Shown here: piece after piece, positions 23,591-58,544 of the stretch
Numbering within the stretch: position 1 is the first letter of the stretch
Layout of the letters: each line of letters begins with the position of its first letter
DNA from: Candidatus Diapherotrites archaeon
GTDB lineage: Archaea; Iainarchaeota; Iainarchaeia; Iainarchaeales; 1-14-0-10-31-34
Length of the DNA: 64,000 bases
NCBI GenBank assembly: GCA_040755695.1
Contig: JBFMAK010000002.1
Coordinates: 62,001-126,000, forward strand
Reading direction: 5' to 3'
The notes under the pieces: model-generated
What the model saw: only the letters and a program-made list of their open reading frames with translations
The model's database searches: none
What the model was told of the DNA's origin: nothing
Translations under genes and position numbers: made by a program

Positions 23591-23717
23591 GCGGGGGTAC
23601 CCAAGCGGCCTACGGGGCAGGACTTAAGTTGAAAAGGAAAAAAATTCAAGATTTTTATTAAAACAGAAGAAATCCTGTGGCTTAGTGCCTTCGGGGGTTC
23701 GAATCCTCCCCCCCGCA
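23591..23717 (+). tRNA. tRNA-Leu (anticodon TAA) with a 43-base intron
   Basis: The acceptor stem GCGGGGG (23591-23597) pairs with CCCCCGC (23710-23716), with discriminator A at 23717; CCA is not encoded. The D-stem is CCC/GGG. The anticodon stem CAGGA (23618-23622) pairs with TCCTG (23673-23677). The loop carries TAA at 23625-23627. A long variable arm (about 23678-23692) marks a class II tRNA. The intron occupies about 23629-23671, at the canonical 37/38 site cut by the archaeal splicing endonuclease. The T-arm reads GGGGG-TTCGAAT-CCTCC. It starts four bases after the Rpo3 stop, so it may be co-transcribed. Confidence 0.93.
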
Positions 23718-54032: not shown

Positions 54033-54527
54033 ATAAAAAAAGAAAACGAAACAGAAAAAATTTTATTCTTCCTAATAAAATTTGCAGTAATATTCTCTGC
54101 CCTGCACCTGCTCGTATGGACTGTGGACCTGAAGTTCTTGGAGGACTGGCTTGCAGGAACAGAAGCAGGCTTCACAGGCCTCCAAAGCAAGGGAAACATC
54201 ATTTTCCTGAAAGAAGAAAAAATTGAAATCAATCCTTCCTGCACAGGCCTCATAAGCGCAAGCATTCTGGCAGCAGTAATCTTTTCATTGAGGAAGCCTG
54301 AAATAAAAAAGAAGATTTTGATTTTCTTGGGTGGGACAATAATTTTATTCCTTTTGAATATTGCGCGAGTGTACTTTGTGCTCTTAATTGGAATAAGTTA
54401 TGGAGCCCAAACAGCAGAATTCGCTCATCAGCTGACCTGGCTGAGCACAGCAGCATTCATTGTAATTTTATGGTATTACTTCACTTTGCGCATCACGAAA
54501 TCAAAGGAATTCCACGAGCTACTCTGA
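54033..54527 (+). CDS. Archaeosortase/exosortase-like membrane protein, apparent ATA start
   Basis: The frame is open from just after a stop at 54024 and reads K-K-E-N-E-T-E-K-I-L-F-F-L-I-K, a basic start and TM helix, and then the downstream protein. The only start with correct spacing to AGGTGAG (54021-54027) is ATA at 54033; the first ATG/GTG in frame is GTG 54123, inside the first helix. About 164 residues with four helices. Exosortase/archaeosortase active-site residues are recognisable: Cys in N-P-S-C-T-G-L, Arg in L-L-N-I-A-R-V-Y-F-V, and His in E-F-A-H-Q-L-T-W. The frame lies 14 bases after CarS. Confidence 0.78.
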   Translation: MKKENETEKILFFLIKFAVIFSALHLLVWTVDLKFLEDWLAGTEAGFTGLQSKGNIIFLKEEKIEINPSCTGLISASILAAVIFSLRKPEIKKKILIFLGGTIILFLLNIARVYFVLLIGISYGAQTAEFAHQLTWLSTAAFIVILWYYFTLRITKSKEFHELL

Positions 54528-54536
54528 GGAAATAAA

Positions 54537-54815
54537 ATGCTATTAAAACCCGGATCAAAAAAAATTGGAACCCTAAGCAATTACTTTTTGAAATTCAAAG
54601 GAAATGTTCCTGAAATAGAAAGTAAATTGGCTTCGATGCCAGCAAAAAAAGTTGCTGGAGAAATGGGAATTCCAGTGCACCCATTTGAGGGATTCATGAA
54701 ACATTTCAATCTAACAAGCACTCGCGGAGAAGCAGAAGCAGAGCAAAAAGAAAGGCGATTTCTGAAGGGCAGTTTCTGGAACAAAAAAAGTGAAATTGAT
54801 CAGAGGAAATTTTAG
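54537..54815 (+). CDS. Unknown small protein, possibly the front half of a frameshifted gene
   Basis: 92 residues, starting ten bases after the archaeosortase-like gene behind GAGGAA. It begins with L-K-P-G-S-K-K-I-G-T-L-S-N-Y-F and has a helix-turn-like K-K-V-A-G-E-M-G-I-P-V-H-P-F. The frame ends after W-N-K-K-S-E-I. Removing one A from the A7 run at 54783-54789 would join it to the +1 frame, which reads on with the sensible sequence K-S-N-E-E-L-C-N-L-L-G-V-P-P-T-R-G. The function is unknown. Confidence 0.55.
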   Translation: MLLKPGSKKIGTLSNYFLKFKGNVPEIESKLASMPAKKVAGEMGIPVHPFEGFMKHFNLTSTRGEAEAEQKERRFLKGSFWNKKSEIDQRKF

Positions 54816-57638: not shown

Positions 57639-57734
57639 TAAAGCTCACTCAAAAGCAAAAAAAATCCAATAAAAATTTAACCCAAAGAAAAGAATAAAAA
57701 CAAGATACTTTCAATTAAAATACTGGAGAACATA

Positions 57735-58544
57735 ATGAACAAAAAAAGCCTGAAAGGCCAAGGCACATTTGAATACCTCCTAATAGTGGTCGGGGCAATA
57801 GTAATTGCAGCCATAGCAATAGTACTGCTCACAGCACAAGGTGAAACAGGAAAAAATGCAGTGAACACAGGAAACACTGCTTTCTCCACTGGAACAGAAG
57901 AACTCCTTGGCCCTCAAGCAGACTTTAACTCAGACAAAACAGAAGGCACAATAAATGACACTTTTAATTTCACAGACCTTTCTACAGCGCCTTCAGGAAG
58001 CAGCATAACTTCATGGAACTGGAGTTTTGGGGATGGGGCAGGAAGCAGTGAACAAAACCCCTCACACCAATACACGAAAGGGGATGATTACACTGTAAGG
58101 CTTACAGTAATAGACAGCAAAGGCAAGACAAGCACTAAAGGAAAATTGATTAAAGTCACTTATTCTACAATCGCAGCAGATTTCACTGCACAGCAATTAT
58201 CCGGAGTAAAGACAGTTACTTTCACTGACACAACAGCAGTGCCCCCTGGAACAACAATTCTTGTAAGGGAATGAAATTTCGGGGACGGCAGCCCTCTATC
58301 ATATGAACAAACCCCGGCTCATGTATATGCAGGCTACACCTCTTACAATGCAACTTTAAGCGTAACAAACGACAAAGGAGAGCAAGGCACAGCAAGCCAA
58401 AATATTTGGGTTGAAAGATTATGCGGTAATGGCATTTGTGAACCGAGTGAAACATGCATGGTCCGCGGTGCTGACTGCGTTGAGCCAAACCCTTATTGTT
58501 GTGATGGGGCCTGCCAGTCATCATCAGTATGCCTGCCAACTTAA
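57735..58544 (+). pseudogene. Pilin-like PKD-domain surface protein with in-frame TGA at a conserved Trp
   Basis: The N-terminus K-G-Q-G-T-F-E-Y-L-L-I-V-V-G is an archaeal class III (type IV pilin) signal with its following hydrophobic helix. PKD domain 1 contains W-N-W-S-F-G-D-G. PKD domain 2 reads I-L-V-R-E-(TGA)-N-F-G-D-G, so the stop at 58272 occupies the conserved Trp position and one base change (TGG to TGA) explains it. The same frame then stays open for 90 codons, finishing the PKD domain and adding a Cys-rich end with C-G-N-G-I-C-E-P-S-E-T-C, to TAA 58542. Alternatives are a nonsense mutation, programmed readthrough or a sequence error. TGA is the normal stop elsewhere here. Confidence 0.8.

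What the first reader, a model, noticed from the sequence alone, without database searches (positions are those of the whole stretch)
57735..58544. In-frame TGA at the conserved tryptophan of the second PKD domain of a pilin-like surface protein
The frame reads I-L-V-R-E-TGA-N-F-G-D-G, while domain 1 of the same protein reads S-W-N-W-S-F-G-D-G. The stop is exactly where Trp belongs, and 90 intact codons follow, with Cys-rich C-G-N-G-I-C-E-P and a clean TAA. Such an intact downstream half argues for a recent TGG-to-TGA change, programmed readthrough, phase variation of surface protein length, or a sequencing error. TGA serves as a normal stop in dozens of genes here, so whole-genome reassignment is unlikely.
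Basis: partly seen in the sequence, partly recalled or inferred. Interest (0 to 1): 0.8.

Follow-up and report, generated by a model that had tools for sequence, protein, structure and literature searches.

The report
Pilin-like surface gene interrupted by TGA
In a small uncultured archaeon, a gene for a pilin-like surface protein carries one stop codon exactly where its second PKD domain should have an almost invariant tryptophan; nothing in the genome points to special decoding, so this is most likely an ordinary recent nonsense mutation or a consensus error.

Summary
Window 57735-58274 (+) encodes 179 aa: a class III (archaeal pilin-like) signal, one full PKD domain and the first strands of a second. 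It ends at TGA 58272-58274, and 89 intact codons follow in frame to TAA 58542-58544. Read through, the second PKD domain is a clear Pfam match (39 bits, cut-off 27). The site is Trp in 525 of 549 aligned x-x-FGDG sites from relatives, and no relative examined has a genuine stop there.

No decoding machinery for this TGA was found. The one tRNA-Trp has a CCA anticodon and a full 5-bp anticodon stem. ARAGORN's only UCA tRNA is an intron-bearing tRNA-Met. There is no tRNA-Sec above its cut-off, no SepSecS, and no unusual RNA fold or repeat at the site. TGA is a normal stop throughout the window.

The gene has no orthologue in 86 other genomes of the phylum. Its site, between secF and a NOG1-like GTPase, is empty in one sister genome and holds a toxin-antitoxin-like pair in another. 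I conclude that this is a dispensable lineage-specific gene with a recent TGG-to-TGA lesion. Consensus error or a strain variant is the main rival. Functional readthrough is possible but unsupported.

The parts
57725..57728 (+). Shine-Dalgarno-like GGAG, 6 bases before the ATG
   Evidence: sequence, (by eye)
57735..58271 (+). open part of the gene, 179 codons, ATG start: class III signal, PKD domain 1, start of PKD domain 2
57753..57824 (+). class III (archaeal type IV pilin-like) signal sequence KGQGTFEYLLIVVGAIVIAAI
   Evidence: PF04021 over the cut-off in the genome search; 23.0 bits, just under the cut-off of 23.7, in hmmscan
57912..58136 (+). PKD domain 1, intact, with W-N-W-S-F-G-D-G
   Evidence: PF18911, residues 60-134; 62 bits in the genome search
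58188..58406 (+). PKD domain 2, interrupted by the in-frame TGA
   Evidence: PF18911, 39.1 bits, one TGA inside
58272..58274 (+). in-frame TGA at the conserved Trp position; next base A
   Evidence: W in 525 of 549 relative sites
58275..58541 (+). 89 intact in-frame codons after the TGA
58422..58541 (+). Cys-rich CGNGICEPSETC... C-terminal tail
   Evidence: similar sequence in 13 other genomes of the phylum and once more in this genome
58542..58544 (+). TAA that would end the full-length protein

Best explanation
This is a lineage-specific, dispensable archaeal surface-protein gene: a class III signal (pilin-like), two PKD domains and a Cys-rich tail. A single TGG-to-TGA change removed the conserved Trp codon of the second PKD domain recently enough that no second lesion has accumulated. 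Translation stops there and gives a 179-aa product with the pilin-like anchor, PKD1 and a stub of PKD2, or no useful product. Shown: the domain content, the stop at the Trp site, the intact tail, the missing orthologues and the variable insertion site. Inferred: that the ancestral codon was TGG, that the allele is fixed or at least real in the population, and that the truncated protein is tolerated.
For: The frame downstream is homologous to real domains (PKD_4; Cys tail) and synonymous codon choice continues across the TGA within PKD2 (+0.22 per codon before, +0.10 after; wrong frames -0.15 and -0.25). Trp is nearly invariant at the site, and TGG is one transition from TGA. Simulated neutral decay leaves the tail open with probability 0.46 after 5 mutations and 0.11 after 15, so few changes have occurred since. 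No orthologue in 86 other genomes of the phylum (best hit 38% identity over PKD repeats). The locus between secF and the NOG1-like GTPase is empty in G004 (about 240 bp) and holds a YoeB-like toxin pair in G003, with the start of a similar first gene in G005. No dedicated UGA-decoding component found.
Against: Only one sequence of the gene exists in the collections searched, so selection cannot be measured and the ancestral codon is inferred from paralogous domains. The completely intact tail is also what functional readthrough, or an error in the consensus, would give. The tRNA inventory obtained is incomplete (33 genes).
Confidence: 0.65

Rival explanations
1. The TGA is not in the organism, or only in part of the population: a consensus error, or a minority strain allele, in a draft assembly of 42 contigs.
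For: The assembly is in 42 contigs, probably a metagenome-derived draft; the gene is otherwise perfect; the lesion is a single base.
Against: Substitution errors are rare in consensus sequence (general knowledge). The site is not a homopolymer. Reads and coverage are not available here.
Confidence: 0.2
2. Functional UGA readthrough: the normal tRNA-Trp(CCA) misreads this UGA at a low or regulated rate, so that a small share of the protein carries PKD2 and the Cys-rich tail.
For: The stop sits where Trp is wanted and the tail is intact. UGA is the stop codon most often misread as Trp by the near-cognate tRNA (general knowledge; 4-bp-stem tRNA-Trp(CCA) reads UGA in PMC13092985).
Against: The single tRNA-Trp has a 5-bp anticodon stem, not the 4-bp stem linked to readthrough. 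Downstream RNA folds no better than shuffles (z +1.2 and +0.2). The same TGA-A context ends normal genes in the window. No relative examined shares the TGA.
Confidence: 0.11
3. Selenocysteine or a dedicated suppressor tRNA decodes the TGA.
For: An in-frame TGA with an intact tail; ARAGORN called one tRNA-Sec(TCA) candidate.
Against: That candidate is an intron-bearing tRNA-Met(CAT): with the intron removed it folds as a perfect tRNA-Met. No tRNA-Sec above the gathering score; no SepSecS, while the M. jannaschii control rings. A pattern search for a UCA-anticodon tRNA gave only non-tRNA sites or other parts of known tRNAs.
Confidence: 0.02
4. Phase variation of surface protein length by a switch at this site.
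For: Surface proteins often vary in phase (general knowledge).
Against: No simple repeat, invertible element or useful direct repeat near the TGA; the change needed is a substitution.
Confidence: 0.02

Closest known systems
Nonsense-interrupted genes (recent pseudogenes or truncated alleles) of accessory surface proteins
   Same: One stop, homologous frame intact after it, gene lineage-specific and at a variable site
   Different: Population data are missing, so fixation is not shown
Archaeal class III signal (type IV pilin-like) proteins, Pfam PF04021
   Same: N-terminal KGQGTFEYLLIVVGAIVIAAI signal; seven such matches in the genome
   Different: Carries PKD domains and a Cys-rich tail
UGA-to-Trp decoding by tRNA-Trp(UCA) or 4-bp-stem tRNA-Trp(CCA) (PMC13092985)
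   Same: In-frame UGA at a Trp position
   Different: Only a CCA tRNA-Trp with a 5-bp stem found; UGA is a standard stop; a single gene is affected

Membership tests
PKD domain (PF18911), domain 2 | profile match over the curated cut-off when the stop is passed over | tested here: met
   39.1 bits, cut-off 27
Class III signal peptide protein (PF04021) | profile match at the N-terminus | tested here: met
   25.9 bits, over the cut-off, in the genome search; 22-23 bits, just under 23.7, in hmmscan
Genome-wide UGA=Trp code | UGA no longer used as a stop | tested here: not met
   TGA ends 35 of 77 ORFs in the window, including CarS
Genome-wide UGA=Trp code | tRNA-Trp(UCA) or 4-bp-stem tRNA-Trp(CCA) | tested here: not met
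   one tRNA-Trp, CCA, 5-bp stem; pattern search for UCA negative; the tRNA list is incomplete
Selenoprotein | tRNA-Sec and SepSecS in the genome | tested here: not met
Programmed stop readthrough | stop conserved in relatives with a conserved tail | tested here: inconclusive
   no orthologue exists to compare; no genuine stop at this site among 549 paralogous or distantly related PKD sites
Programmed stop readthrough | extended protein made in cells | not testable with these tools
   needs mass spectrometry or ribosome profiling
Nonsense-interrupted gene | stop real and fixed in the population | not testable with these tools
   needs raw reads or further strains

The most novel reading that the evidence does not exclude
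The UGA is kept on purpose: near-cognate tRNA-Trp(CCA) reads it at a set low rate, so that a small fraction of this pilin-like protein carries the second PKD domain and Cys-rich tail. That would be a case of functional stop readthrough in an archaeal surface protein.
Probability: 0.06. Interest if true: 0.6.

Novelty: new member of a known kind. Interest (0 to 1): 0.13.

Why it matters
If ordinary, it matters little: an accessory surface gene in a small archaeal genome carries a nonsense codon or an assembly error. It would matter if peptides after the TGA were found, because functional readthrough at a domain's own Trp codon would then need explaining in an archaeon with a standard code.

Tried and rejected
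tRNA-Sec call by ARAGORN at C2:9112-9217: rejected, it is tRNA-Met with an intron in the anticodon stem. Other TGA-containing PKD hits: L025 in G085 was read and its TGA is a normal C-terminal stop; L026 in G057 (5 TGA and 1 TAA inside) was not examined. Stops at the Trp site in other loci: three, all off-frame. Viral contigs: no match to the site with G or A in the third place after ATG-like 'AATGR'. Plasmids: only general PKD proteins, none covering 80% of the query. RNA structure and repeats: nothing. Rfam found nothing in the window. Synonymous codon score: the tail as a whole is at the 10th percentile of gene chunks and 39% of wrong-frame chunks reach it, so codon usage alone does not prove that it is coding; homology does. 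Structure prediction was not run, as the fold of PKD domains is known and would not tell a mutation from readthrough.

Full report
OBSERVATION. The ATG at 57735 opens a frame of 179 codons that ends at TGA 58272-58274. After the TGA 89 sense codons follow without a stop to TAA 58542-58544. The protein begins with a class III signal sequence (PF04021: over the cut-off, just below), followed by a complete PKD domain (PF18911, residues 60-134). A whole-genome PKD_4 search recognised the interrupted second domain by itself (C2:120188-120406, window 58188-58406, 39.1 bits, one TGA inside). The tail after it is Cys-rich (CGNGICEPSETC...) and similar sequence occurs in 13 other genomes of the phylum at E<=0.01 and once more in this genome.

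THE SITE. Among 549 distinct x-x-[FYW]GDG sites in the loci of relatives, 525 have W where this gene has TGA. The three that show a stop are off-frame matches with several other stops. One TGA-bearing PKD hit in a relative (L025) was read, and its TGA is a normal C-terminal stop. So the TGA replaces a near-invariant Trp codon and, among the relatives examined, it is found only here.

ORGANISM AND CODE. The window lies in a 1.30 Mb archaeal draft of 42 contigs, 99.85% complete. Neighbours are archaeal: SecD/SecF, CDP-archaeol synthase CarS, a NOG1-like GTPase, the DNA polymerase small subunit. TGA is a normal stop: of 77 non-overlapping ORFs of at least 100 codons (a mechanical set, some may be spurious), 35 end in TGA, 33 in TAA, 9 in TAG. 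CarS matches its profile to the last position and ends in TGA, followed by A as at 58272.

DECODING MACHINERY. Thirty-three tRNA genes were found. The only tRNA-Trp has a CCA anticodon and a 5-bp anticodon stem CTTGG/CCAAG. The 4-bp stem form that reads UGA in some eukaryotes and bacteria (PMC13092985) was therefore not seen. ARAGORN's one UCA call, C2:9112-9217, has an intron; taking it out so that CCAGA pairs with TCTGG gives a perfect tRNA-Met(CAT). tRNA-Sec reaches no gathering score and SepSecS is absent. A pattern for any UCA anticodon followed by a T-arm, allowing an intron up to about 28 bases, found only tRNA-His, tRNA-Thr (other parts of those genes) and three places that are not tRNAs. 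A limit: several isoacceptors (for example Lys, Glu, Asp, Pro, Cys, Tyr) were not in the list, so the inventory is incomplete.

READTHROUGH OR SWITCHING SIGNALS. RNA after the TGA folds no better than shuffles (z +1.2 and +0.2). No repeat or inverted element of note lies around it.

EVOLUTION. No orthologue was found in 86 other genomes of the phylum; the best matches are PKD repeats at 31-41% identity or signal sequences only. Nor was one found in public genome contigs, viral contigs or plasmids. The genus is represented by this genome alone. The three other genomes of the same family keep secF, and two of them the NOG1-like GTPase beside it. Between these, G004 has about 240 bases without a gene of note, and G003 has a two-gene pair whose second member resembles Txe/YoeB toxins (22.6 bits, below the cut-off); G005 shows the start of a similar first gene before its contig ends. 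The spot is thus variable, and the pilin-like gene is an accessory gene.

AGE. In a simple neutral model with 10% indels, the tail stays open with probability 0.86 after one mutation, 0.46 after five, 0.11 after fifteen. The intact tail therefore suggests few changes since the stop arose, or continued use, or an error. Synonymous codon preference is similar on either side of the TGA within PKD2 (+0.22 and +0.10 per codon) but is -0.11 in the Cys tail (41 codons), and over the whole tail it does not separate well from wrong frames.

CONCLUSION. A recent TGG-to-TGA nonsense change in an accessory surface gene explains all observations with no added machinery. A consensus error or strain variant is the next likeliest. 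Functional leak-through by near-cognate tRNA-Trp is possible, but nothing found here supports it specifically. Reads at 58274, or a second strain, would decide.

Noticed in passing
G000 C2:9112-9217 (L142): tRNA-Met(CAT) with an intron of about 31 nt inserted in the 5' strand of the anticodon stem rather than at the usual 37/38 site; ARAGORN misreads it as tRNA-Sec(TCA).
   Followed up: yes
23591-23717 (+): tRNA-Leu(TAA) with a 43-nt intron, missed by the default window scans (ARAGORN and Rfam) but found by the genome search.
   Followed up: partly
G000, whole genome: Only 33 tRNA genes found; several isotypes (for example Lys, Glu, Asp, Pro, Cys, Tyr) are missing in a 99.85% complete genome and many found ones have introns, so further tRNAs may be hidden by unusual introns or be split.
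   Followed up: partly
54123-54527 (+): Exosortase/archaeosortase family protein (TIGR04178 55 bits; PF09721) about 3 kb upstream of the surface gene; not assigned to a named subtype.
   Followed up: partly
L174 327-967 (G003): At the syntenic site in a sister genus lies a two-gene pair, the second weakly like Txe/YoeB toxins (22.6 bits, below cut-off), in place of the pilin-like gene.
   Followed up: partly
54537-54815 (+): 92-aa ORF right after the archaeosortase, same frame, with no Pfam or NCBIfam match.
   Followed up: no
G000 C2:269508-269633 (L198): A second CGNG-type Cys-rich tail in this genome, at the end of contig C2, in a frame of 1152 codons.
   Followed up: no
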